From JAYEMH01 sp034717985 [NCBI: Candidatus Ratteibacteria bacterium] (GTDB lineage Bacteria > CAZDME01 > JAYEMH01), in NCBI GenBank assembly GCA_034717985.1, contig JAYEMH010000034.1, forward strand, positions 1 to 10,424: DNA of 10,424 nt, given 5' to 3'. How positions within the stretch are numbered: position 1 is the stretch's first letter; each line of letters begins with the position of its first letter. This document shows positions 1,533 to 10,424 of this stretch, piece by piece. The notes under the pieces were generated by a model. That model worked only from the letters and a program-made list of their open reading frames with translations, was not told where the DNA came from and made no database searches. Position numbers and translations under genes: made by a program.

Positions 1533-1574
1533 CAGACTATAGACATCAGACACCAGACATCAGACATCAGACTT
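1533..1574. repeat. Short heptamer tandem array, CAGACAT type
   Basis: Six consecutive 7-bp units can be read in phase: cagacta, tagacat, cagacac, cagacat, cagacat, cagactt. Their reverse complement (ATGTCTG) resembles the units of the larger array at 1778-1910. The two arrays therefore face each other in inverted orientation across the palindromic element. Confidence 0.85.
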
Positions 1575-1585
1575 TTCTATGTAAA

Positions 1586-1698
1586 CCCCGTTAGAGAACT
1601 TTGTTCTCTAACGTCCTGCGCTGACGGTGGCTTTAAACCACCGTCAGCTTCAAGTGATGATGACCACCGATTAAAATCGGTGGCTTTCTCTAACGGGG
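1586..1698. repeat. Intergenic multi-hairpin palindromic element (MITE- or REP-like)
   Basis: The ends are inverted repeats: CCCCGTTAGAGAA on the left and TTCTCTAACGGGG on the right. Inside are three independent palindromes: AGAGAAC/GTTCTCT around TTT, GCTGACGGTGG/CCACCGTCAGC around CTTTAAA (11 bp perfect), and CCACCGATT/AATCGGTGG around AA. No protein is encoded. Nested hairpins bounded by matched ends are typical of non-autonomous elements mobilised by Y1/REP-type (IS200/IS605-like) transposases or of structured repeat families. The mobilising enzyme is not in the window. The termini match those of the element inside mfd (5082-5167), which suggests one family. Confidence 0.8.
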
Positions 1699-1777
1699 TA
1701 AACAGTCAACCTCTGGAGAATCCTTCCTGATTCTTTGCCTATAATTCTTCTAATCTCTATTTATTTTTTTCATCTCA

Positions 1778-1947: not shown

Positions 1948-4900
1948 TTAATCCTTCTGCAAGAGCTTTTTCAAAAGCGGCAGGCTCGCTTTATCGTCAC
2001 TTTCCTTCCATTCCAAAGCCAGATTCAGCCGATTGTCCTGAGCCTGGCGAAAAGAAAACCTGTTCCCGGCTGATTCAGTTAGTTTCTCAATTTCCGGAAG
2101 AGCCGGCATATATTCGGGATTGAACTGAAAATTGAAAGTTCCTTCCTCTTTTTGCCGATAGATTCGTTCAATTCCCCAGTGATTGGCCTGAATTCTTATT
2201 TCAGCTAAATCCAGAAGAGCTGCCATCCCCTCTTTTAAAGGACCAAAGCGGTCAACAAGCTCAATCTTCAAGTCATTCAGCCCCTCTATAGTTTCCAGGG
2301 AAGAAAGCTTGGCATAAATCTCTACTTTCTGTCCTGCCTCCGGAATATATTCATCCGGAATATATTCGGGCACATCTAAATTGACCTTTGTCTCTAAACG
2401 CGGAGCGGAAATGACCTTTCCCTTTAATTCAGAAACAGATTCTCGAAGTAACCGGCAGTACAAATCAAACCCAACGGCGGTAATAAATCCATGCTGCTGG
2501 TGTCCCAGAATATTTCCTGTTCCCCGAATTTCCAGGTCACGCATGGCGATTCGAATACCGGCTCCCAGTTCGGTAAATTCCTCCATCGTCTTAAGGCGTT
2601 TGACTGCCTCCCCGCTAACTATTTCGCCCTCAGGGATAAAAAGATAAGCATAAGCGCGGTGTTTATACCGGCCTACCCGTCCCCGAAGCTGATAAAGGTC
2701 AGCCAGGCCATACCGGTGAGCATTAATGATAATGATAGTGTTCACATTGGGGATATCCAATCCCGATTCAATAATGGTAGTAGAAACCAGAACATCGATT
2801 TCTCCGTTGATAAAACGGCGCATCACTTTTTCCAGCTCTTTTTCCTGAAGACGGCCATGGGCGACAGCAATTTTTAAATCAGGCAGGAGTTCCCTGAGCC
2901 TTCCGGCTGTCTTATGAATATAATTGATGCGGTTAAAAACAAAAAATACCTGTCCTCCCCGTTCTACTTCGCGCCGAATTGCTCCGCAAATTATCTTTTC
3001 ATCATATTCCAGAATAAAAGTTTGAATAGGAAGCCGGTCGCGCGGCGGAGTTTCAATCACGCTCAAATCCCGAATACCGGTAAGAGACATATAAAGGGTG
3101 CGGGGTATCGGCGTAGCGCTCAAGGTCAAAACATCAACTAATTCCCGGATTTTCTTTATCTTTTCTTTATGGGCTACCCCAAAACGCTGTTCTTCGTCTA
3201 TCACCAGTAAACCTAAATCTTTAAACTTGACGTCATCCTGGAGCAGACGATGAGTGCCAATGATTACATCAATCTTCCCGGCAGCTAATTCTTTAATAAC
3301 TATCTCCTGCTCCTCCGAAGTCCTAAACCGGCTTAACATTTCAATCCGGATGGGATAATTAGCCATCCGGTCCCCGAAGGTGTAATAATGCTGCTGGGCT
3401 AAAATCGTGGTGGGAACGAGAATGGCCGCCTGTTTCCCTTCGGTAGCGGCCTTAAAAGCGGCCCGGACAGCCACTTCGGTTTTACCATAACCGACATCGC
3501 CGCAAACCAGCCGGTCCATCGGCCGGGCCCTTTCCATATCCTTTTTTACCTCTTGAATTGCCTCCCTCTGGTCAGGGGTTTCCTCGTATATAAAAGAAGC
3601 TTCAAACTCTTTTTGCCAATCGCTGTCCCCGGAAAAGACAAAGCCGGGCCGCGTTTCCCTTTTGGCATAAATATTCAAAAGTTCGGCGGCCATATCCCTT
3701 AAAGCCCTTTTTGTTCTTTTTACTGCCTTAAACCAGGCACTGCCTCCTAATTTATAAAGTTTTGGCGCTGTCCCTTCAGAACCGATATATTTCTGCACTA
3801 ACCTGACCTGTTCGATGGGAACGTAAAGTATGTCACCGCCCTGATATTCAACTGCCAGAAAATCTTTTTTTCCTTCTTCGATTTTTAATTTTTTTATTCC
3901 CTGAAATTTACCGATACCGTGATTGAGGTGAACCACCAAATCTCCCTTTTCTAATTCCCGGTAAGTAGAAAGGGGTAAGCCTCCTTTAAAACGCTGACGA
4001 GGACGCCTCTCGGCATAGCGATGAAAGATTTCTCGGTCGGTAATAACGGCGAGCTGCAAATCGGGGAAGAGAAAACCCCGGTTCAACTCGGCGACAACAA
4101 AAGATATATTTTTTGCCGGATTTACCCCGTTCTCTTTGAGTAACTCCTTAAGCCTTCTCTCCTCTCCTTCGTTTTGCGAAACGAGAGAAACCTTAAATTT
4201 TTCTTCCTGCCATTTCTGAAGACGGGAAAGAAAACCGGAAAAATCTTCCCAGAGCGTATCAATTGCCCGGGTGCTGATTTGAAATTTTGAATCTATTGGA
4301 ATTTCCGGCATTGACTGCCGAATGGTAGAAAAACAGATTCTCTTTTTCGTTTTTATAAAAGTGATGAGTTCCCTCCAGAGAGATTCGGTCAACTGGGCTT
4401 TAATCAGCCCCGGTTCATCCAAAACAACCAAATCTATATTACTGAGGAATTCAAAGAAATTGCTTTCTCCCTGAATGGCCGCCGGGGGAATAAAAACAGA
4501 TTTTACCTTTTTTAAAGAACGCTGGGTAAGGGGATCGAAATAACGGATGGATTCGATTTTTTCGCCAAAGAATTCTATTCTTACAGGATTTTCCTCGCTC
4601 AGGGGAAAGATATCAAGGATGCCTCCCCGAAGAGAAAAATTTCCTTTCTCCTCGGCAAGGGGAAAGCGGATATATCCGCCCTGGTCCAATTTCTTTAAGA
4701 TGTTACCTAAATCATATTCTTTGCCTGAAAATATTTCCAGAGACAAACGATTGAATTGCGGCGGGGATATAACTTTATGGTAGAAGGACTTTGCCGAAGT
4801 GACAAAAATTTGAAGAGTTTCCGGGGACTCACCGCTTAAAAGTTTCAAAATCCTTAACTGTTCCCCGACAATATCCTTATGCGGTAAAATCTTTTCCTTA

Positions 4901-5256
4901 GGCAGAATTTCCCAGGCGGGAAAGTTAAAGGTTTCCCGGCCGCTAAAAAATTTTATATCCTGAGCTGCTTTTTCTGCTTCTGTAATGCCGGCTGAAATTA
5001 ACAAAATCCGCCGGGAAAAACTTTTCCCCAGCCCGGCCAGCCAGAAAGCTTTAGCCCCCGGGACTAAGCCGCTAATTTCCACCCCATTAGAAATTCCCTC
5101 TACAAGCGGGACAGCCGCCTTGCCCCTAAAGGGATGGCTTCGCCTAGGCGACTTACTTCTAACGGGGCAGGCCCCATTATCTCCGGAGAATGTTCTTATA
5201 ACTTCTTTAAACTGAGAAAAATCCTTTAGTGAATTTATGAGTTTTTCGGAATTCAT
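1948..5256 (-). CDS. mfd: Transcription-repair coupling factor Mfd
   Basis: Mfd pushes RNA polymerase off DNA lesions using ATP and recruits UvrA to start nucleotide excision repair. The 1102-residue length is close to the usual ~1150. Order seen: UvrB-like N-terminal region (about 60-300), CarD-like RNA polymerase interaction domain (about 430-500, with [20 protein letters not shown]), then the RecG-like translocase. The translocase has Walker [10 protein letters not shown] (586-594), DEEQ (687-690), LSATPIPRT (712-720), [12 protein letters not shown] (826-837) and QLRGRVGR (856-863). The C-terminal TRCF domain follows (about 950-1060). The start has a Shine-Dalgarno GAGGA close to the ATG. 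Residues about 27-57 look foreign: a basic stretch ([16 protein letters not shown]…) encoded by a palindromic element at 5082-5167 that keeps the frame open. The translocase motifs are intact, so the protein is probably active. Confidence 0.97.
5082..5167. repeat. Palindromic element inside the mfd coding frame
   Basis: The plus strand begins CCCCATTAGAA and ends TTCTAACGGGG, which are inverted repeats with one mismatch. Inside are the perfect 12-bp palindrome TCGCCTAGGCGA (5140-5151) and a shorter CCC-TAAA-GGG hairpin. The right end is followed by GGGGC-AG-GCCCC. The termini match those of the intergenic element at 1586-1698. The frame stays open through it, adding about 29-31 residues (basic, Pro/Arg/Ser-rich) between the first helix of Mfd and the UvrB-like region. 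Confidence 0.7.
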
Positions 5257-5281: not shown

Positions 5282-5358
5282 ATTGGTAATTTCGGTTATT
5301 TGGGCATTGTTTATTGTTTGTGGTTTGTATATTGTAATTTGGGTATTGGTTTATTATT
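5282..5358. repeat. Degenerate heptamer tandem array between mfd and the permease gene
   Basis: Eleven 7-bp units can be read in phase from 5282: attggta, atttcgg, ttatttg, ggcattg, tttattg, tttgtgg, tttgtat, attgtaa, tttgggt, attggtt, tattatt. The unit sequence differs from that beside pdxA, but the period is the same. It fills most of the 100-bp spacer between the permease stop and the mfd start and touches the permease stop codon (5357-5359). Confidence 0.65.
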
Positions 5359-6388
5359 ATATAAGGCTTATCCAGAAGGGAACGGTAACAATAGATAGAA
5401 GATGGGTAAAGAATACCCCGGACCCGGCTAAGTCCGGGTCGCCGCCGTAACGCTGGACGAAAAGAGGAGTAGTAGAAGCCGAAGGCATACCGGCCTGAAG
5501 AACAAATATACCCAGAATAGGAGAAGGGAAAGAAAATAATTTACCTATTCCCAGGGCTAAGGCGGGAATAATAAGCAGGCGGATTAAAACCAGCGGGACA
5601 ATCAGTTTGAAAGATATCCTTTTATGAAATTTTTGCCCGGCCAGTATCCCGCCGATAATCAGCATCGCCAGCGGAATGGTAATTCCGCCGATAAGCCCGA
5701 ATGCCCCGTCGATTATGTAGGGCAATTTTACTCCCAGAGCGACACCCAAAAATCCTAAGGCTAAAGCGATGGTGCCCGGGTTAAATATCCCGCACCTTTT
5801 TAATATCCCGCCGGTTCCCCGGCAAAAAGGTGCGGAGCCGCCCCGGAGAATACTTACGCCCAAAGTCCAGATGAGAACAGAAAATCCAAGGTTAAAAATA
5901 ACTACTCTAACAACTCCTTCCTGTCCAAAAAGAAATAGAGCCAGGGGAATGGCTAAAAATCCGCAGTTAGTAAATGAAGAAAGATAGAGGAAGGTTTTCT
6001 TTTGTGGATTAGGCGCAGAAATAAATCCCGCCCCTTTCTGCCGGCTAAGTACCGACCCAGTCCCTTCTGACTCTGCTTTCATGCTATCTTGTGGAAAATG
6101 CGGGGTAAAAAGGTGCGGGATAAATCTACTGCAACAATAAGCCAGTATTGCGCCGGTTAAAACAATACCAACCGCCAAAAGAGGCAGATACCAGCTGGAA
6201 ATTAAAACTTCCCGCGAGGTCTGGGCAACCAGAACATAAAAATATAAAATGGGAAGAGTCAGCCCGATAACCAATTTATTTAAATCACGGGTAACCGCTT
6301 CAGTTAAAATCTTCCAGAATCTGGCCAACACCCCGACCAAAACGATTAATAAAAGAATGCCAATCTGACTAATTATCTCCTGAAACAT
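5357..6388 (-). CDS. AEC (auxin efflux carrier) family permease with two repeat-encoded loop insertions
   Basis: AEC-family proteins (Pfam Mem_trans, TC 2.A.69) are inner-membrane permeases with about ten helices, usually exporting organic acids such as malate; the substrate here is unknown. The 343 residues show alternating hydrophobic segments and two family hallmarks: SFTNCGFLAIPLAL (138-151) and, near the C-terminus, QAGMPSASTTPLFVQRYGGD (298-317) followed by the last helix. Two hydrophilic stretches between helices look inserted. Residues ~88-127 are encoded by an inverted-repeat element (6021-6125), and residues ~183-203 by a nested hairpin (5790-5835). Both lie in loops, so the fold may tolerate them. 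The start ATG lies at the end of an attC-like palindrome, with only a weak GAGAG as Shine-Dalgarno. The gene may therefore depend on read-through from the cassette region. Confidence 0.88.
   Translation of the reverse strand: MFQEIISQIGILLLIVLVGVLARFWKILTEAVTRDLNKLVIGLTLPILYFYVLVAQTSREVLISSWYLPLLAVGIVLTGAILAYCCSRFIPHLFTPHFPQDSMKAESEGTGSVLSRQKGAGFISAPNPQKKTFLYLSSFTNCGFLAIPLALFLFGQEGVVRVVIFNLGFSVLIWTLGVSILRGGSAPFCRGTGGILKRCGIFNPGTIALALGFLGVALGVKLPYIIDGAFGLIGGITIPLAMLIIGGILAGQKFHKRISFKLIVPLVLIRLLIIPALALGIGKLFSFPSPILGIFVLQAGMPSASTTPLFVQRYGGDPDLAGSGVFFTHLLSIVTVPFWISLI
5790..5835. repeat. Nested perfect hairpin inside the permease gene
   Basis: CCGCACCTTTTT (5790-5801) and AAAAAGGTGCGG (5824-5835) form a perfect 12-bp stem. 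Its interior holds a second perfect hairpin, GCCGG-TTCC-CCGGC (5810-5823). The minus-strand reading through it is hydrophilic (SAPFCRGTGGILKRCG) and falls in a loop of the permease. The 12-mer recurs at 6107-6118 in the same gene. Confidence 0.8.
6021..6125. repeat. Second palindromic element inside the permease gene
   Basis: The left arm (6021-6042) and the reverse complement of the right arm (6104-6125) match at 17 of 22 positions, sharing ATCCCGC-CCTTT-T-CC. The span is 105 bp, exactly 35 codons. The right arm contains AAAAAGGTGCGG, the same 12-mer that forms the stem at 5790-5835. On the minus strand it encodes a hydrophilic stretch with no membrane character (about residues 88-122). Confidence 0.65.
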
Positions 6389-6452
6389 AAGCTCTCGCCC
6401 CGGGAATTACCCGCCCCGACGCTTCGGAGTCAGGTACAGCGCTTTGTTATCT
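6388..6452 (-). other. Degenerate attC-like site at the edge of the cassette region
   Basis: Read on the minus strand it starts AGATAACAAAGCGCTG, overlapping the antitoxin stop codon. It continues TACCTGACTCCGAAGCGTCGGGGCGGGTA, where TACCTGACTCCG pairs imperfectly with CGGGGCGGGTA. It closely parallels the left half and loop of the site at 8727-8789 (shared ATAACAAA, TGAC.CCGAA, TCGGGGC.GG). The right end (GAGAGCTTATG) is a poor match to the GTTRRRY recombination core. A worn attC at the last cassette boundary is the best reading. Confidence 0.5.
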
Positions 6453-6734
6453 ATGATATTTTACAAGTTCCTCTTCTACTTTCTCTGAAATATAAAGCTT
6501 CATAAGCGACTGGTAAGGAATATCTTTTTTGTGTGCTATCAATTTTAATTCTTCAACCATTATTTCAGGCAGACGGATTGAAATGCTTATTACAGACGGT
6601 TTCAAATTGGATAAAGTCATATCCTTTGCTTTTGACCAGTCAATATACTCAGTAGAATCATGGGAATTCCAAAACTTTCTTTCCTCGTCTTCATTTCTGA
6701 ATTTTGGTATTCTATTCTTTTTCATGTTCTTCAT
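6447..6734 (-). CDS. brnA: BrnA/CopG-type antitoxin of a BrnT toxin
   Basis: This is the antitoxin half of a type II module. It should bind and neutralise the adjacent BrnT ribonuclease and, as a dimer, repress the shared promoter. The 95 residues begin with the pattern IPKFRNEDEERKFWNSHDST (residues 9-28), known from CopG-antitoxin (PF12441-like) proteins. The C-terminal half SISIRLPEIMVEELKLIAHK…PYQSLMKLYI is a ribbon-helix-helix DNA-binding fold: a short strand, then two helices. The gene overlaps the end of brnT by 23 bp. Two in-frame ATGs (6734 and 6725) compete for the same AAAGGAG Shine-Dalgarno. The first is very close to it and the second is 11 bases away, so the product may be three residues shorter. 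An attC-like site starts at its stop codon. Confidence 0.85.
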   Translation of the reverse strand: MKNMKKNRIPKFRNEDEERKFWNSHDSTEYIDWSKAKDMTLSNLKPSVISISIRLPEIMVEELKLIAHKKDIPYQSLMKLYISEKVEEELVKYHR

Positions 6735-7026
6735 ATCTCCTTTTCTCTTTTTTATTCATATCTCTTGCAGATATTACTCGAATTAATTTATTCCGTATCG
6801 TAAAAACAATAAACAACTTTCGATGCAAATCAGTTTTCCCCAAAATAAAACATCGTCTTTCATATTCAGAATGTTTTGCGTCATCAGCCATAATTAATGG
6901 TTTATTAAAAAAAATTTGCTCACACTCAGATGGGGTAACTTTATGATTTTCCCAATTTTTTTTGGCATTATACTCATCCCATTCAAAACCGGTGCATTTC
7001 TGTAATACTTTGTAAATATCACGCAT
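6712..7026 (-). CDS. brnT: BrnT family ribonuclease toxin
   Basis: BrnT toxins are small RelE-fold ribonucleases that stop translation by cutting RNA and are held inactive by BrnA. The 104 residues match the family layout: FEWDEYNAKKNWENHKVTPSE (14-34; usually FEWDe.Ka..N..KHgVsFeeA), a central HSEYERRCFILGKTD stretch, then KLIRVISARDMNKKEKRRYEEHE at the end (usually RIISAR.A...ErrrYE). The conserved RVISAR and RRYEE are complete, so the toxin is probably functional. The only in-frame start is the ATG at 7026. It lies inside a perfect palindrome and just where transcription should begin from the promoter at 7033-7061. No Shine-Dalgarno is visible. It is a typical stabilising passenger in integron arrays. 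Confidence 0.88.
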   Translation of the reverse strand: MRDIYKVLQKCTGFEWDEYNAKKNWENHKVTPSECEQIFFNKPLIMADDAKHSEYERRCFILGKTDLHRKLFIVFTIRNKLIRVISARDMNKKEKRRYEEHEKE

Positions 7027-7039
7027 ATACTAAGTATAT
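7025..7039. promoter_or_regulatory. Palindromic operator overlapping the brnT start codon
   Basis: ATATACT-A-AGTATAT is a perfect 15-bp palindrome. It covers the -10 hexamer and the first two bases of the brnT start codon. Ribbon-helix-helix antitoxins bind palindromes of this size over their own promoters, so this is the likely BrnA-BrnT repression site. The palindrome is seen directly; its role is inferred. Confidence 0.6.
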
Positions 7040-7061
7040 ATCATAAACATACATTTGCCAA
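7033..7061 (-). promoter_or_regulatory. Near-consensus sigma-70 promoter of brnT-brnA
   Basis: On the minus strand, TTGGCA (7061-7056) and TATACT (7038-7033) are separated by exactly 17 bp. Initiation about seven bases past the -10 would fall on the A of the brnT ATG (7026), which predicts a leaderless or nearly leaderless toxin mRNA. Confidence 0.6.
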
Positions 7062-7081
7062 ATTAATTTTATGTGTGTCAT

Positions 7082-8125
7082 TCAAAAACAACGTTTCTTT
7101 TGTTTTTTCAAACAAGAATTTCCGCATTTGTAGCATATTTCATTTTTGAGATATCCGCCGTCAAAAAATTCTTTAAGATTATTCAGTGTGGTTTCTGCAA
7201 TATTGCCTAAGGCCTCGGATGTAAAGAACCCCTGGTGTGATGTAATTAGAACGTTTGGAAATGTTAATAAACGCGCAAGGATATCATCGGTAATCATTTC
7301 TGTTGATTTATCTTCAAAAAAATATTCGCTTTCTTCTTCATATACATCGAGTCCCGCTGTTCCTATTTTTCCGCATTTAAGGCCGTTTATTAACGCTTCG
7401 GTGTGAATTAATTTCCCCCGGCCGGTGTTGATTATCATAACGCCGTCTTTCATGAGGCCTATCGTTGTCTCGTTAATCATATGTTCCGTCTCAGTATTGA
7501 GCGGACAGTGAAGAGAAATAACATCGGATTTTGCATATAATTCATTTAAATTTACATATTTTATGCCGGTTTTCCCCGCATATTCTTCGTTTGGCTCAGG
7601 ATCATAGGCAAGAACGTTCATCCCAAACCCTTTTAATATAGAAACAAGACATTTTCCGATTTTGCCGGTCCCGACAATTCCGGCAGTCTTCTCATGCATG
7701 TCAAAGCCAAGCAGACCATTAATTGAAAAATTTCCGTCCCGCGTGCGGTAATACGCCTTGTGTATTTTTCGGTTGAGGGACAACATAAGAGCGGTGGCAT
7801 GTTCTGCAACAGCAAAAGGAGAATAGGCCGGAACGCGGACAACATGAATTTTTCCATAGGCAGCTTTAAAATCGACATTGTTATACCCGGCGCATCGCAA
7901 AGCGATTAGCTGAACGCCATGCTCAACAAGGTATCCAATAACTTCTTTGTTGAGCGCATCATTGACAAAGATACAGACAGCATCAAAGTTATAGGCTAAT
8001 TCCGCAGTTTTTTGATTAAGATGCGCCTCAAAATAAGTTATGTCGAATTCGAAATTTTTATTGATTTCATCAAATGATTTACGGTCATATGGCTTGGTGT
8101 CGAAAAAAGCGATTTTTTTATTCAT
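7082..8125 (-). CDS. ldhA: D-lactate dehydrogenase-like D-2-hydroxyacid dehydrogenase
   Basis: Enzymes of this family reduce pyruvate to D-lactate with NADH in the cytoplasm. The 347 residues resemble LdhA over their whole length: N-terminal FFDTKPYD (7-14), CAGYNNVD (78-85), the Rossmann motif GTGKIG (152-157) after AGIV, an acidic residue in YDPEP for NAD preference, and INTGRG (232-237) with catalytic Arg236. The Glu is probably in VYEEE (261-265), and the catalytic His297 is in SHQGFFT. The start ATG follows GAGGG at normal spacing. The odd part is the tail: after LKNEI the protein continues with CYKCGNSCLKKQKKRCF. This holds four Cys and many Lys, and ordinary LdhA proteins end near this point. 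The tail could bind metal or sense redox state. Other hydroxyacid substrates are possible. Confidence 0.88.
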   Translation of the reverse strand: MNKKIAFFDTKPYDRKSFDEINKNFEFDITYFEAHLNQKTAELAYNFDAVCIFVNDALNKEVIGYLVEHGVQLIALRCAGYNNVDFKAAYGKIHVVRVPAYSPFAVAEHATALMLSLNRKIHKAYYRTRDGNFSINGLLGFDMHEKTAGIVGTGKIGKCLVSILKGFGMNVLAYDPEPNEEYAGKTGIKYVNLNELYAKSDVISLHCPLNTETEHMINETTIGLMKDGVMIINTGRGKLIHTEALINGLKCGKIGTAGLDVYEEESEYFFEDKSTEMITDDILARLLTFPNVLITSHQGFFTSEALGNIAETTLNNLKEFFDGGYLKNEICYKCGNSCLKKQKKRCF

Positions 8126-8148
8126 AAATTTTCCCTCATTTTTTCGCG

Positions 8149-8209
8149 GCTCAATCCCAATATTTTTCTATTTTTAAATGGCGGATAGTAACAGTCAGAT
8201 GTAACATAA
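8149..8209 (-). other. Possible decayed attC remnant between methyltransferase and dehydrogenase genes
   Basis: The minus strand contains CATCTGACTGTTAC, matching CATCTGACCGTTAC of the clear attC at 9635-9712 with one change. Further on it has GGGATTGAGCC, where that site has TGCGTTGAGCC. The order and spacing resemble an attC, but the two arms between them hardly pair and the AAC of the left core is changed. This is weak support, offered mainly because it falls exactly at a cassette boundary. Confidence 0.25.
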
Positions 8210-8212
8210 ATT

Positions 8213-8728
8213 TCAGCTATCTTTTCTTATTGACAATTTGATATTCTCCGCTGGGAATATATATGTCCAGAATCGTTCGTAGATATCTGGATATTTATTG
8301 GCTAAATATTTAATTCCCGCCAATCTAAATGCCTTATAAAATGTAATTTCTTGTTTAATAACTGTAATTCCATCGATATCACTTAGCAAATTGTTAAACA
8401 TGAAATAAGAATAAAATAGTTTATGTTGCGGTTCGGAGTAAGCTACACGACATGAAAAATGGGGGGTTTCAACAAATGCTGTGCCTCCCGGCTTTAAAAT
8501 GCGCGAAATTTCCTTTATCAACCTTTTAGGGTCATTCAGGTGTTCAATAATATGTTTGGCATAGATTCTGTCAATGCTGTTATCTTCTATAGGATAAGGA
8601 TAAGAATTCAAGTCATGTAAAATATCGGCCTGGCTCTTTTCATCAATATCTATACCTATAGCGTTAGGTATTTTATTACGTGCACAGCCGATATCAAGTG
8701 TTTTGCAATTTTCCGGGTTACTTTTCAT
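8213..8728 (-). CDS. Class I SAM-dependent methyltransferase
   Basis: The protein carries the Methyltransf_11-type signature: motif I LDIGCARNKIPNAIGIDIDE (SAM-binding loop followed by an acidic residue), then DNSIDRIYAKHIIEHLNDP (motif II region with the frequent HxxEHL), and ILKPGGTAFVETP (motif III). The first strand lies near the N-terminus, so no upstream domain is missing. The tail (FWTYIFPAENIKLSIRKDS) has no catalytic motif I know. The substrate is unknown; similar small methyltransferases often sit in glycan or polysaccharide loci. A longer frame from a TTG at 8770 is open, but those 14 codons are attC-like sequence, so I chose the ATG at 8728 (171 residues). It has no good Shine-Dalgarno, which fits a gene captured directly behind a recombination site. 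Confidence 0.85.
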   Translation of the reverse strand: MKSNPENCKTLDIGCARNKIPNAIGIDIDEKSQADILHDLNSYPYPIEDNSIDRIYAKHIIEHLNDPKRLIKEISRILKPGGTAFVETPHFSCRVAYSEPQHKLFYSYFMFNNLLSDIDGITVIKQEITFYKAFRLAGIKYLANKYPDIYERFWTYIFPAENIKLSIRKDS

Positions 8729-8789
8729 ATTTACTATGGGTATTCCCCTGCCCCGAAGATTCGGGGTCAAGTGGATTGGTTTGTTATAA
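8727..8789 (-). other. attC-like cassette recombination site, right arm degenerate
   Basis: On the minus strand the left half reads TTATAACAAACCAATCC followed by ACTTGACC. It matches the corresponding part of the attC at 9635-9712 (CATAACAAGCCGATCC, ATCTGACC) at about 20 of 24 positions. The centre CCCCGAA-TC-TTCGGGG is a perfect hairpin. The right arm (GGCAGGGGAATACCCATAGTAAATA) parallels that of 9730-9804 (GGCAGGTGATTTTTATGTTATG) but has lost a clean GTT core. It ends at the start codon of the methyltransferase. Confidence 0.55.
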
Positions 8790-8821
8790 TTTTATTTATG
8801 TATTTCATTATTTTAACCTGT

Positions 8822-8848
8822 AGGGACAAGACATGCCTTGTCCTCTAT
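8822..8848. repeat. Small GGACAAG hairpin repeat
   Basis: GGACAAG-ACATGC-CTTGTCC (8824-8843) is a 7-bp perfect stem. Flanking bases extend it imperfectly (TAGGGACAAG…CTTGTCCTCTA). The sequence resembles the widespread REP-like hairpin family built around GGACAAGGCATGCCTTGTCC. There is no U tract directly after it on the minus strand, so a terminator role for the upstream gene is uncertain. Confidence 0.5.
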
Positions 8849-8876
8849 AGAATGATTTTTAATATTTTGTCCCTCT

Positions 8877-9110
8877 TTATCTCTTTTTCCGATAAGTTGC
8901 TTCAGTTGTTTGTTCGTCTCCGTCCTCGTCTGCATGCAAGTCAATAAACCGTCCGCGTCGTTTCTCTTGCCTGCTCTTCTCCGAGTAAGGTTTGTCTTTG
9001 ATCTCCTCTTTCACCATTTTGTCAGTTTCTTTTAACTCTTTTTGCAGTTTTTTTTCTCCGCCAGTCCTTTGAACGTTACCGTTCTCCTGATTTTTTTCTT
9101 CATTAGACAT
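8877..9110 (-). CDS. Small, highly charged hypothetical protein
   Basis: This 77-residue protein has no hydrophobic core. The first 45 residues are almost all Lys, Glu, Asn, Gln and Asp, and the rest mixes basic (RQEKRRGRF) and acidic (HADEDGDE) patches, ending in YRKKR. It is probably intrinsically disordered. It is nonetheless a credible gene. A strong Shine-Dalgarno AGGAGG lies eight bases before the ATG, and it sits in line with the other cassette genes. It follows the basic protein gene at 9211 after about 100 bp containing a long imperfect hairpin. I recognise no family. Such proteins can be stress-related hydrophilins or nucleic-acid or protein-binding factors, but nothing in the sequence decides this. 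Confidence 0.65.
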   Translation of the reverse strand: MSNEEKNQENGNVQRTGGEKKLQKELKETDKMVKEEIKDKPYSEKSRQEKRRGRFIDLHADEDGDEQTTEATYRKKR

Positions 9111-9150
9111 AATTTTTCCTCCTAGTTGTTAGGTTTCTATTGGTCGCTGT

Positions 9151-9209
9151 TCCGATGGAACGATTATCAGATCAAATCGTGACTACTACAACTTGACCAT
9201 GATCGTCCT
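9151..9209. repeat. Long imperfect hairpin between two small cassette genes
   Basis: On the plus strand, GGAACGATTATCAGATCAAATCGT (9157-9180) pairs imperfectly with the stretch ending at 9208 (ACTTGACCATGATCGTCC), with about 16 pairs plus several G:T wobbles. A smaller perfect hairpin GTTCC-GAT-GGAAC (9149-9161) overlaps one arm. Directly next to it, over the stop of the 9211 gene, the minus strand reads GTATAACA, which resembles the left core of the local attC sites. No GTTRRRY core is found at the far side. It may be a worn attC or a rho-independent-like structure without a clear U tract. Confidence 0.4.
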
Positions 9210-9210
9210 G

Positions 9211-9438
9211 TTATACATTTTTTGTCAGCACGACGGCGTTATGCCCGGGGTTCATACTCTCATGCCTTCTTTTGGCGTTGTTCGCATAACCCTGCTTCGT
9301 ATACATGTTGCTGACCCAGCCATACGCACCGTGGGAATTATGTCTACAATACGCGTAGTATCGCTTCTGACCCTTTGTGCTCCGCCGCTTGGCAGCCGCG
9401 GAAGCAGTCTTCGGAGACGCTTTCTTCTTAGTAACCAT
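9211..9438 (-). CDS. Small basic protein with Lys/Ala-rich tail, function unknown
   Basis: The first 25 residues (VTKKKASPKTASAAAKRRST…) are a Lys, Ala, Ser and Pro-rich arm like those of histone-H1-like or other DNA-binding proteins. The remaining 50 (RYYAYCRHNSHGAYGWVSNM YTKQGYANNAKRRHE…) look like a small folded domain rich in Tyr, His and Asn. That second part faintly recalls single-repeat DUF1508 proteins ('…SegYt.k..A..aakr…'), but I would not name it on this. An ATG three codons earlier (9447) lies inside AAGGATG, too close to a ribosome site. The ATG at 9438 has AAGGA at eight bases, so I chose it (75 residues). It is cationic and probably binds nucleic acid. It lies just after the attC at 9635-9712 with about 190 bp of leader. 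Confidence 0.65.
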   Translation of the reverse strand: MVTKKKASPKTASAAAKRRSTKGQKRYYAYCRHNSHGAYGWVSNMYTKQGYANNAKRRHESMNPGHNAVVLTKNV

Positions 9439-9634
9439 GCTTAACATCCTTTTTGTTTTGTTGCTCGGGATTTCTTGCTAACTTCCGTCTAATTCAATGG
9501 CACATTGATTTTTGTCTACCGAGTCTGTAGAAAAAACCCATTTTCTGAGAAAAACCAAAAATTAAATTAAATCTCTCCTCGAGACTAAACTTTGCTTTTA
9601 GTGATAAAAAGCCTTTTTTAGACTTTTCCTGCAG
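9439..9634. other. Leader region without a gene before the small basic protein
   Basis: No open frame is supported in this roughly 195-bp AT-rich stretch. A small inverted repeat, TCTAC/GTAGA around AGACTCG, lies near 9515-9532. No confident promoter could be read on the minus strand. It is long for a cassette leader, and integron cassettes often lack their own promoters. Confidence 0.4.
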
Positions 9635-9712
9635 GCTCAACGCAAAAATCAGCGGCCGTTATCCCGACGCCGAAGACGACGGGTAACGGTCAGATGGATC
9701 GGCTTGTTATGT
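9635..9712 (-). other. attC site (integron cassette recombination site)
   Basis: Read on the minus strand it begins ACATAAC (left core; consensus RYYYAAC) and ends GTTGAGC (right core; consensus GTTRRRY, full match). Between them, AGCCGATCCATCTGA and CCGTTACCCG pair with CGGGATAACGG and CCGCTGATTTTTGC, with small bulges and a loop at GTCGTCTTCGGCG. The length (78 bp), the imperfect palindrome and the …CCGCTGATTTTTGCGTT… ending are those of environmental attC sites. This is the best of the set. Confidence 0.8.
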
Positions 9713-9729
9713 GTTTCTTTATTAATTTC

Positions 9730-9804
9730 ACATAACATAAAAATCACCTGCCTTACGGAATGGCGAAGCCGCGGAGTAAGGTCCGCTGGATTTATTTGTT
9801 AGAA
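9730..9804 (-). other. attC site directly downstream of the second toxin-antitoxin module
   Basis: The minus strand runs from TTCTAAC to GTTATGT over 75 bp. The left arm TAACAAATAAATCC…GGACCTTACTCCG pairs with the right arm CCGTAAGGC…GTGATTTTTATGTTA through most of its length, with the usual bulged bases. It starts nine bases after the antitoxin stop, the normal place for the attC of a cassette. The right core departs from GTTRRRY in one or two positions. Confidence 0.7.
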
Positions 9805-9812
9805 GCAGTTAA

Positions 9813-10040
9813 TTATGATAAGGATTTTTGTACGCGTTCTGCCACCCAAACCTTGATGATAGATTGCCGAGCTACACCAAGACGCTTTGCTTCCTTATCT
9901 AAAGATTGAATCATCCATAGAGGGAAATCTACATTAACTCTTTTTTGTTCTTGCTCAGGTCTCCTCGCCTTTGATATATCGAGGTATTTAGATATATCTT
10001 GGCCTTTATCAAATTTTTTATCAAAATCTTTAGTCTTCAT
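9813..10040 (-). CDS. BrnA-like ribbon-helix-helix antitoxin
   Basis: The 75 residues open with MKTKDFDKKFDKGQDISKYLDISKA, a family-typical lead-in, and continue RVNVDFPLWMIQSLDKEAKRLGVARQSIIKVWVAERV. This is a complete ribbon-helix-helix: strand, helix with a basic face, turn at GV, second helix. It should neutralise a BrnT-type toxin and bind operator DNA. The gene start is set by GAGGAGG nine bases before the ATG at 10040; a TTG nine bases earlier lies inside that ribosome site and is rejected. It overlaps the end of the toxin-derived gene by 11 bp, as in normal modules. The partner is a headless chimera, so this antitoxin may now act on BrnT toxins elsewhere, as an anti-addiction factor. 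Confidence 0.85.
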   Translation of the reverse strand: MKTKDFDKKFDKGQDISKYLDISKARRPEQEQKRVNVDFPLWMIQSLDKEAKRLGVARQSIIKVWVAERVQKSLS

Positions 10041-10422
10041 AGATATCAACCTCCTCTTGTCGAGCTCGACGAACTGAAATAATTCTTATTTTTTCTCCTC
10101 GATACGTAATCACTCCTGAGTAATGTTTACCTGAAATACGCCCTATCACCAAAAGCCTTGATTCATCATGTGTTTTTTTTGAGTGTCCCGGAGTATGAAT
10201 AATTTTAATTGAAATACCTGCTTCCAGTTCAATCAAGTCATTGTCTTTAATTAATTTGTCAATTTTAACGGATTTGTTGACAAAAGACTTAAACCCCGGA
10301 ACCGGACGATCAGAACATTGTTTTTCAATGTTCTCTATCCATTCTTTTTCGCCTTCATGTGCTAAAACTTCACAATTAGATTTCTCTTTAATATTTCTTG
10401 CCGAGCCAATATGGTCAGGATG
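10030..10422 (-). CDS. Chimeric gene: metallo-beta-lactamase-fold front fused to BrnT rear; 5' end outside the window
   Basis: The frame is open from the window edge to the stop at 10030 (130 residues visible). The first part reads HPDHIGSARNIKEKSNCEVL… and later GISIKIIHTPGHSK. HPDHIG is the tail of the HxHxDH metal motif, and HTPGHS holds the third metal histidine of metallo-beta-lactamase-fold hydrolases. Right after HSK, where such enzymes continue 'GS…', the sequence changes to KTHDESRLLVIGRISGKHYSGVITYRG and EKIRIISVRRARQEEVDIYE. This is the back half of a BrnT toxin, including RIISvRrA. The BrnT N-terminal FEWD part is absent, and so is the last part of the hydrolase. BrnT proteins also carry an 'HS' at this place, so joining could have occurred at a short shared sequence. 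It probably codes neither a working hydrolase nor a working toxin, unless the fusion has been adopted. Confidence 0.75.
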   Translation of the reverse strand, partial: HPDHIGSARNIKEKSNCEVLAHEGEKEWIENIEKQCSDRPVPGFKSFVNKSVKIDKLIKDNDLIELEAGISIKIIHTPGHSKKTHDESRLLVIGRISGKHYSGVITYRGEKIRIISVRRARQEEVDIYED

Positions 10423-10424
10423 GG

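What the first reader, a model, noticed from the sequence alone, without database searches (positions are those of the whole stretch)
6388..10424. Probable integron gene-cassette array without an integrase in view
Seen: four imperfect palindromes (9730-9804, 9635-9712, 8727-8789, 6388-6452) in the same orientation. They share a left end of the form TAACAAA…ATCCA…TGACC and a right arm …GGTGATTTTT/CGCTGATTTTT…GTT. Each lies just past a stop codon or just before a start codon of small accessory genes. The genes all run one way, include two TA modules, and look AT-richer than the housekeeping block. Known: sedentary integrons carry such promoterless cassettes and TA modules. Inference: this is the distal part of an array in an uncultured lineage, abutting conserved genes at about 6390.
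Basis: partly seen in the sequence, partly recalled or inferred. Interest (0 to 1): 0.8.

Follow-up and report, generated by a model that had tools for sequence, protein, structure and literature searches.

The report
Integron array with nested recombination site
An uncultured bacterium carries the worn end of an integron, the bacterial system that collects genes as small cassettes, and in it one recombination site appears to have been split by a tiny cassette that landed inside it.

Summary
A covariance model built from 31 attC sites of other bacteria (window excluded) finds 9804-9730 (51.1 bits) and 9712-9635 (35.3 bits) on the minus strand. It does not accept 8789-8727 or 6452-6388. Those two keep the attC left arm and hairpin but lack the right R box, so they look like dead remnants. 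The genes are cassette-like (BrnT/BrnA toxin-antitoxin, methyltransferase, dehydrogenase, small unknowns). No integrase was seen in the window; whether one lies beyond 10424 is unknown.

New here: the two good sites each have a mismatched L box, and the mismatches are reciprocal. Left arm of site 1 plus stem and right arm of site 2 closely match one intact attC of an Omnitrophota integron. The other two halves form a second plausible attC. The simplest reading is a 92-bp ORF-less cassette circle inserted inside an attC, at the L''/central-spacer boundary instead of the normal R' point. None of 135 neighbouring attC pairs examined in relatives is this close, and 1 of 231 relative sites has the same hybrid L box.

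Also: 18 of 384 Omnitrophota genomes carry an integron integrase, all 18 with attC hits.

The parts
9730..9804 (-). attC site 1 (read as hybrid: left arm of attC A, stem and right arm of attC B); L''=CAGCGG, L'=CAGGTG
   Evidence: R1 model 51.1 bits; L-box mismatches at pairs 3 and 5 of 6
9635..9712 (-). attC site 2 (read as hybrid: left arm of attC B, stem and right arm of attC A); L''=CATCTG, L'=CCGCTG
   Evidence: R1 model 35.3 bits; stem and right arm best match L102:6803-6880, score 41 against 16.5 for the next of 63
9688..9779 (-). inferred inserted 92-bp ORF-less cassette circle, bounded by GACC at 9780-9783 and 9688-9691
   Evidence: period 92; folds of the rejoined halves
9713..9729 (-). 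17-nt spacer between sites 1 and 2; R' of site 1 (GTTATGT) and R'' of site 2 (ACATAAC) complementary 7 of 7
8727..8789 (-). attC remnant (site 3): left arm and hairpin kept, 5 of 6 L-box pairs, R' lost (GTA instead of GTT)
   Evidence: fold z -2.93
6388..6452 (-). attC remnant (site 4): left arm and hairpin kept, 6 of 6 L-box pairs with one T-G, no R' box
   Evidence: 11.3 bits, E 0.53
10030..10422 (-). 5'-open ORF: metallo-beta-lactamase-fold fragment fused to C-terminal half of BrnT
   Evidence: PF00753 residues 1-81, PF04365 residues 82-124
9813..10049 (-). BrnA-family antitoxin, cassette gene before site 1
   Evidence: NF047399 126.4 bits, cut-off 60
9211..9447 (-). small ORF, 78 aa, no family found
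8877..9110 (-). small ORF, 77 aa, no family found
8213..8728 (-). SAM-dependent methyltransferase, 171 aa from the ATG at 8728 (start not certain)
   Evidence: PF08241 E 3e-11
7082..8125 (-). D-2-hydroxyacid dehydrogenase
   Evidence: PF02826 E 2.4e-55
6712..7026 (-). BrnT toxin
   Evidence: PF04365 E 9.2e-24
6447..6734 (-). CopG/BrnA antitoxin
   Evidence: PF12441 E 5.6e-31; NF047399 53.2 bits, under its cut-off of 60

Best explanation
The stretch 6388-10424 is the distal, decaying end of an integron gene-cassette array in an uncultured bacterium. Read on the minus strand it is a row of cassettes: BrnT/BrnA pair, attC; small unknowns, attC remnant; methyltransferase, dehydrogenase and BrnT/BrnA, attC remnant; then chromosomal genes. 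As seen, it is a cluster of attC sites lacking an integrase. The first attC (A) was split when a 92-bp ORF-less cassette circle carrying attC B joined it at the short shared GACC where the L'' box meets the central spacer, instead of at the normal G|TT of R'. This left two hybrid attC sites 17 nt apart whose L boxes no longer pair fully within each site but pair across the two. Shown: the attC identity of sites 1 and 2, the reciprocal L boxes, the match of the outer halves to one intact attC of a relative. Inferred: the circle, the order of events, and the way it joined (replication template switch at the hairpin base, or an off-site act of the integrase). Sites 3 and 4 have no R' core, so by the known reaction their cassettes should be frozen in place (inferred).
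For: attC model built without the window finds sites 1 and 2. The model's structure covaries in its 31 seeds: 96.6% of 495 cells paired, score 0.547 against 0.152 shuffled and at most 0.133 slid. Cassette boundary rule: R' of a site pairs with R'' of the next 7 of 7 in 77 of 135 neighbouring pairs of relatives, against 3.5% of random pairs; window sites 1 to 2 give 7 of 7. Swap: own L boxes 4 of 6 pairs in both sites, cross-paired 6 of 6 both ways, T-G allowed. Of 231 relative sites with a readable L box, 181 have no mismatch, 44 one, 5 two, 1 three; only L146:232-305 has the same hybrid. L102:6803-6880 matches site 1's left arm 22 of 24, and site 2's stem plus right arm with score 41, next best 16.5 of 63. 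Rejoined A scores 59 to L102 against 47 (site 2) and 32.5 (site 1), and 38 to L139 against 32 and 25; rejoined A folds at -21.3 kcal/mol against -9.4 (site 1) and -13.2 (site 2). The 170-nt pair folds as one nested junction: minus strand -31.0, z -3.74, 0 of 200 shuffles as good; plus strand -29.4, z -2.81, 2 of 200. Sites and spacer folded apart sum to -22.6.
Against: No integrase, attI or cassette promoter could be looked for beyond the window. Site 2 to site 3 breaks the boundary rule (3 of 7), so at least one cassette is fused or cut. Site 1's left arm alone is a common type (21 of 24 to three other sites). The B half is weakly supported: rejoined B's best relative scores 35.0, whereas site 1 as it stands scores 37.5 to L098:8157-8239, and B folds at only -11.4. 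Rejoining gains nothing against L141 (28.5 both ways) and L142 (29.5 both ways), and L141 carries an A-like stem with CACCTG/CAGGTG boxes, so the stem alone does not tell which boxes it began with. Tandem attC sites can in general cross-pair through R' and R'', so the nested fold is weaker evidence than the L boxes. Four further relative sites with one mismatch combine two common L-box types, so hybrid boxes arise in other ways too. A join over 4 shared bases has no demonstrated mechanism here.
Confidence: 0.66

Rival explanations
1. A plain cassette array whose two adjacent attC sites changed in the L boxes by point mutation or by piecemeal exchange of short stretches; no insertion inside an attC took place.
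For: 44 of 231 relative sites carry one L-box mismatch, and 4 of these combine two common box types. Sites 3 and 4 show that attC sites in this array decay. Site 1 as it stands has a relative scoring 37.5, above rejoined B's 35.0.
Against: Both sites mismatch at the same two pairs and each L half fits the other site 6 of 6. Only 6 of 231 relatives have two or more mismatches. The 17-nt spacing is below the smallest of 135 pairs, 85 nt. Site 2 without its left arm, and site 1's left arm, both fit one intact relative.
Confidence: 0.2
2. Assembly artefact: the assembler joined different attC copies of one array or of several strains.
For: Similar attC sites are said to complicate assembly (PMC9024848, passage seen). 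The host genome is not held.
Against: The two junctions share only GACC, far less than an assembly overlap (own knowledge), and two reciprocal misjoins would be needed.
Confidence: 0.08
3. The palindromes are an ordinary dispersed repeat family, not recombination sites.
For: Other palindromic repeats lie in the window, for example 1580-1704. The host's own genome could not be searched.
Against: Model hits follow integron integrases: 18 of 18 carriers, 7 of 27 other genomes of the phylum, 1 of 50 Atribacterota. Boundary rule. Covariation with a bulged base on the L'' side.
Confidence: 0.03
4. The hybrid pair acts as one composite attC: the outer arms pair, the inserted part forms a side hairpin, and the integrase excises or inserts at the outer R boxes. 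(An add-on to the best explanation rather than an exclusive rival.)
For: Best fold of both strands is the nested junction.
Against: Outer R boxes TTCTAAC and GTTGAGC pair poorly outside the AAC/GTT core (read by eye); no recombination data.
Confidence: 0.15

Closest known systems
CALIN (cluster of attC sites lacking an integron integrase; IntegronFinder 2.0, PMC9024848, passages seen)
   Same: At least two attC sites, cassette genes in one direction, no integrase in view.
   Different: The window ends 0.6 kb upstream of site 1, so an integrase nearby is not excluded; two further sites are dead remnants.
Sedentary chromosomal integron arrays (as in Vibrio, Xanthomonas; recalled)
   Same: attC structure with R'', L'', bulged base, L', R'; TA cassettes; array beside housekeeping genes.
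   Different: Integrase, attI and promoter not seen; array short and decaying.
Integrons of Omnitrophota found here (L090-L109)
   Same: Closest attC sites, including L102:6803-6880; same L-box types.
   Different: 181 of 231 readable sites have intact L boxes and none of 135 neighbouring pairs lies within 85 nt; the 16 of 18 genomes with a scored Mfd have a short Mfd frame of 628-747 aa, the window 1102.
Hybrid attC (attC aar-3/catB3 of In1085, PMC5454043, one passage seen) and fused cassettes (PMC4670013, start of abstract seen in a search listing)
   Same: A site or cassette made from parts of two.
   Different: Fused cassettes are said there to come from loss of an attC; the In1085 passage names one hybrid and does not tell its origin. 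Here two reciprocal hybrids are kept with a small cassette between them.
ORF-less gene cassettes (PMC6557892, search listing only)
   Same: Cassette with an attC but no ORF.
   Different: Here it lies inside another attC.

Membership tests
attC site (sites 1 and 2) | R'' ending AAC and R' beginning GTT, pairing | tested here: met
   site 1 TAAC/GTTA, site 2 TAAC/GTTG
attC site (sites 1 and 2) | L''/L' pairing with a bulged base on the L'' side of the top strand | tested here: inconclusive
   bulged A present; only 4 of 6 L pairs in each site, 6 of 6 when swapped
attC site (sites 1 and 2) | significant match to an attC covariance model made without them | tested here: met
   51.1 and 35.3 bits; model from 31 sites of relatives only. 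Not the published model, which was not at hand.
attC site (sites 1 and 2) | recombination of the folded bottom strand by an integron integrase | not testable with these tools
   needs a laboratory assay
attC site (sites 3 and 4) | complete R'' L'' L' R' structure | tested here: not met
   no GTT core at R'; 11.3 bits E 0.53 for site 4 and no hit up to E 10 for site 3
Gene-cassette array | R' of one site complementary to R'' of the next (start and end of one cassette) | tested here: met
   sites 1 to 2: 7 of 7; sites 2 to 3: 3 of 7, not met there; sites 3 to 4 not counted, as site 3 has no R'
CALIN | at least 2 attC sites, no integrase nearby | tested here: inconclusive
   2 sites found; the neighbourhood beyond 10424 is not held
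Complete integron | intI gene, attI site, cassette promoter | not testable with these tools
   no genome held for the window
Ordinary dispersed repeat | copies scattered without integrons | tested here: not met
   in relatives only: 18 of 18 intI genomes, 7 of 27 others, 1 of 50 Atribacterota; the host itself not tested

The most novel reading that the evidence does not exclude
Cassettes can enter an attC not only at R' but at the base of its central hairpin, the L''/unpaired-central-spacer boundary. This gives nested, reciprocally hybrid attC sites that together fold as one four-way composite site, which may lock the neighbouring cassettes in place or change which boundary the integrase uses.
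Probability: 0.23. Interest if true: 0.75.

Novelty: new variant of a known kind. Interest (0 to 1): 0.47.

Why it matters
attC sites are read by shape, so how they swap halves bears on which cassettes stay mobile. A reciprocal pair of hybrid attC sites, with the inserted cassette still between them, would be a record of one off-site joining event and makes that route testable. The side result, integron integrases in 18 of 384 genomes of the Omnitrophota phylum, all 18 with attC hits, adds a phylum not named in the 2021 list of integron-bearing phyla (PMC8618304, passage seen).

Tried and rejected
Rfam scan of the window: four matches, none reaching its family's gathering score. A home-made palindrome scan with loose settings was unspecific; one search listed one stretch over site 1 among several chance ones, one search did not list the four sites. 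The stricter version served to pick seed sites near integrases and printed nothing for the window itself. DNA folding of each site alone gave modest z-scores (-1.48, -0.92, -2.93, -1.57 for sites 1-4 on the minus strand) and does not prove attC sites. The Mfd tree was meant to place the host; it left the window outside the Omnitrophota clade but unresolved, on a long branch, with short Mfd rows in that clade. No Mfd match as good as E 1e-216 in 384 Omnitrophota, which says little because their Mfd is short; the best seen in handles was 1.1e-212. The 6 of 50 Atribacterota with E up to 1e-230 are 45-52% alike. pdxA beside mfd: 6 of 8 Omnitrophota loci (the two without, L034 and L059, end near or inside mfd) and 0 of 4 Atribacterota stretches, of which only two, L224 and L225, hold more than 5 kb downstream of mfd. 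Host phylum therefore left open, Omnitrophota-like most likely. A viral contig found with an attC A pattern (L138) is read as a chance match inside a coding stretch (no model hit). An attC B pattern found nothing in viral contigs. The right-arm motif of sites 3 and 4 is absent from the 127 loci then held and is unexplained; with up to 2 mismatches it gives 4 window matches, of which 2 are sites 3 and 4. Window cassette proteins found no match at E 1e-4 in the loci then held, apart from BrnT at 31-39% in two.

Seed bias: the 31 seeds of A1 were hand-picked's output across 11 of 20 loci for good pairing, so leans towards the structure, and these seeds are among the 240 sites. Long sites such as L098:5579-5705 and L098:6921-7050 and several further L106 sites were left out of A1. 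In one search, 9 of 240 sites were dropped because the L box had gaps; the 240 include 4 weak matches with E between 0.01 and 1. Neighbouring pairs are those under 2500 nt apart in the fetched stretches.

Full report
Setting. The window holds, all on the minus strand, pdxA (471-1490), mfd (1948-5256) and a membrane-transport gene (5357-6388), followed towards 10424 by small accessory genes. No genome is held for it. The host is uncertain. pdxA lies beside mfd in 6 of 8 Omnitrophota loci (the other two end near or inside mfd) and in 0 of 4 Atribacterota stretches, only two of which are long enough downstream. The Mfd core is 52-61% identical in 7 of 8 Omnitrophota genomes, the eighth being a fragment at 44%. 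But the window's Mfd is full length (1102 aa), whereas the 23 Omnitrophota rows in the tree are 628-747 aa, and the tree leaves the window outside that clade without resolution.

Checking the sites. I looked for integrases in the phylum of one Omnitrophota genome. 18 of 384 genomes pass the curated cut-off of TIGR02249, and 0 of 14 control genomes. I took 20 stretches around them, picked 31 attC-like palindromes by eye from a scan, aligned them and tested the attC structure on them: 96.6% of 495 cells paired, covariation 0.547 against 0.152 in shuffles and at most 0.133 in slid versions. The seeds were chosen for pairing, so this leans towards the structure. A covariance model from these 31 sites, none from the window, scored on every position of the window, gives 51.1 bits for 9804-9730 and 35.3 bits for 9712-9635; the next best, 6452-6380, has E 0.53, and 8789-8727 is not listed up to E 10. 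E-values are rough by the tool's own warning.

Are they attC sites and not just repeats? The model hits 18 of 18 integrase-bearing genomes and 7 of 27 others of the phylum at E 0.01 (the integrase status of one of the 27, G003, was not tested), and 1 of 50 Atribacterota at E 0.001 (strict filters in both). A second test does not use the model's score: in an array the R' box after one attC and the R'' box of the next attC are the two ends of one cassette and should be complementary. In relatives, 77 of 135 neighbouring pairs fit 7 of 7, against 3.5% of random pairs. Window sites 1 and 2 fit 7 of 7, sites 2 and 3 only 3 of 7.

Sites 3 and 4. Both carry an attC left arm and a paired hairpin: L box 5 of 6 and 6 of 6 pairs, stem 7 of 7 and 6 of 6, T-G allowed. 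Both lack the GTT core of R', which is where the integrase cuts (own knowledge; passages of PMC8946536 seen give the general layout). I read them as dead attC remnants; the genes before them are then fused or frozen cassettes. Their right arms share GGG-AAT-CCC-like letters that I cannot explain.

The swapped pair. Site 1 has L'' CAGCGG but L' CAGGTG; site 2 has L'' CATCTG but L' CCGCTG. Within each site 4 of 6 pairs form; across the two sites 6 of 6 form both ways. Among 231 relative sites with a readable L box (of 240), 181 have no mismatch, 44 one, 5 two and 1 three. A single one, L146:232-305, is the same CAGCGG/CAGGTG hybrid; four more, with one mismatch, combine two common box types. The closest relative of site 2's stem and right arm is L102:6803-6880 (score 41, next 16.5 of 63), and that site begins with a left arm 22 of 24 identical to site 1's, but 16 of 24 to site 2's. 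Rejoining site 1's left arm with site 2's remainder (attC A) raises the score to L102 from 32.5 and 47 to 59, to L139 from 25 and 32 to 38, and the fold from -9.4 and -13.2 to -21.3 kcal/mol. It gains nothing against L141 and L142. The converse join (attC B) gives a site whose two R boxes pair fully, at -11.4 kcal/mol; its best relative scores 35.0, while site 1 as it stands reaches 37.5 with L098:8157-8239, so the B half is the weak side of the case. L141 has an A-like stem with CACCTG/CAGGTG boxes, so stems and boxes are not tightly tied (all).

The order along the DNA is therefore read as A-left, B-right, 17-nt spacer, B-left, A-right. That is what one crossover between attC A and a circular cassette bearing attC B would leave, if it fell at the L''/spacer boundary. 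The shared letters at both junctions are GACC, 92 bp apart. The whole 170 nt prefers one nested junction on both strands.

Mechanism. Shown: two attC sites, reciprocal L boxes, boundary rule. Inferred: a 92-bp ORF-less cassette circle, joined at GACC. Two routes fit: a replication template switch at the base of the attC hairpin, or an off-site act of the integrase. I favour the first, weakly, because there is no GTT core at the point of exchange. An assembly join is unlikely with four shared bases and two reciprocal junctions needed. Drift or piecemeal exchange cannot be excluded but needs matching changes at the same two pairs of both sites.

Relation to what is known. As seen, this is a CALIN in IntegronFinder's sense (two attC sites, no integrase in view; PMC9024848 passages). 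A hybrid attC is in print (PMC5454043 passage), and so are fused cassettes (PMC4670013, search listing). Two searches for hybrid, composite or interrupted attC sites (listings, with passages opened for PMC6393395, PMC5454043 and PMC8946536) showed no cassette nested inside an attC; the library holds open-licence papers only. Omnitrophota is not in the list of integron-bearing phyla of PMC8618304. Searches for integron with Omnitrophota and attC with Omnitrophica gave 1 and 2 papers, unrelated by title and start of abstract and not opened.

Verdict. The array is ordinary in kind; the nested hybrid pair is the part that deserves a follow-up.

Noticed in passing
window 10030-10422, minus strand: ORF open at the window end: metallo-beta-lactamase-fold fragment (residues 1-81) fused in frame to the C-terminal half of BrnT (residues 82-124), beside an intact BrnA. 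Far below the NCBIfam cut-offs for true beta-lactamases.
   Followed up: partly
window 1580-1704: MITE-like element between pdxA and mfd: terminal inverted repeats around three inner palindromes.
   Followed up: partly
window 5082-5167: Related-looking short element (CCCCATTAGAA ... TTCTAACGGGG, read by eye) lying in frame inside the mfd reading frame near its N-terminus; the repeat tool did not list it at its settings.
   Followed up: no
window 1533-1572 and 1778-1907: Intergenic tandem repeats of 7 nt, with inverted copies of each other, in the pdxA-mfd gap.
   Followed up: no
window 8821-8847; L090:11488-11578: Palindrome GGGACAAGACATGCCTTGTCC, in a stretch shared with an Omnitrophota array region (75.5% over 94 bp).
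   Followed up: no
L146:232-305 (G255): The one relative attC with the same hybrid L box (CAGCGG/CAGGTG) as window site 1; a possible second case of half-swapping.
   Followed up: partly
L090 (G133 contig 44): Integrase gene lies at the far end of its attC row and on the same strand as the attC sites, unlike the divergent layout of L102 or L107.
   Followed up: no
Omnitrophota loci L027-L046 (Omnitrophota rows only) and L110-L125: Mfd frames of these genomes are short (628-747 aa), unlike the window's 1102 aa.
   Followed up: no
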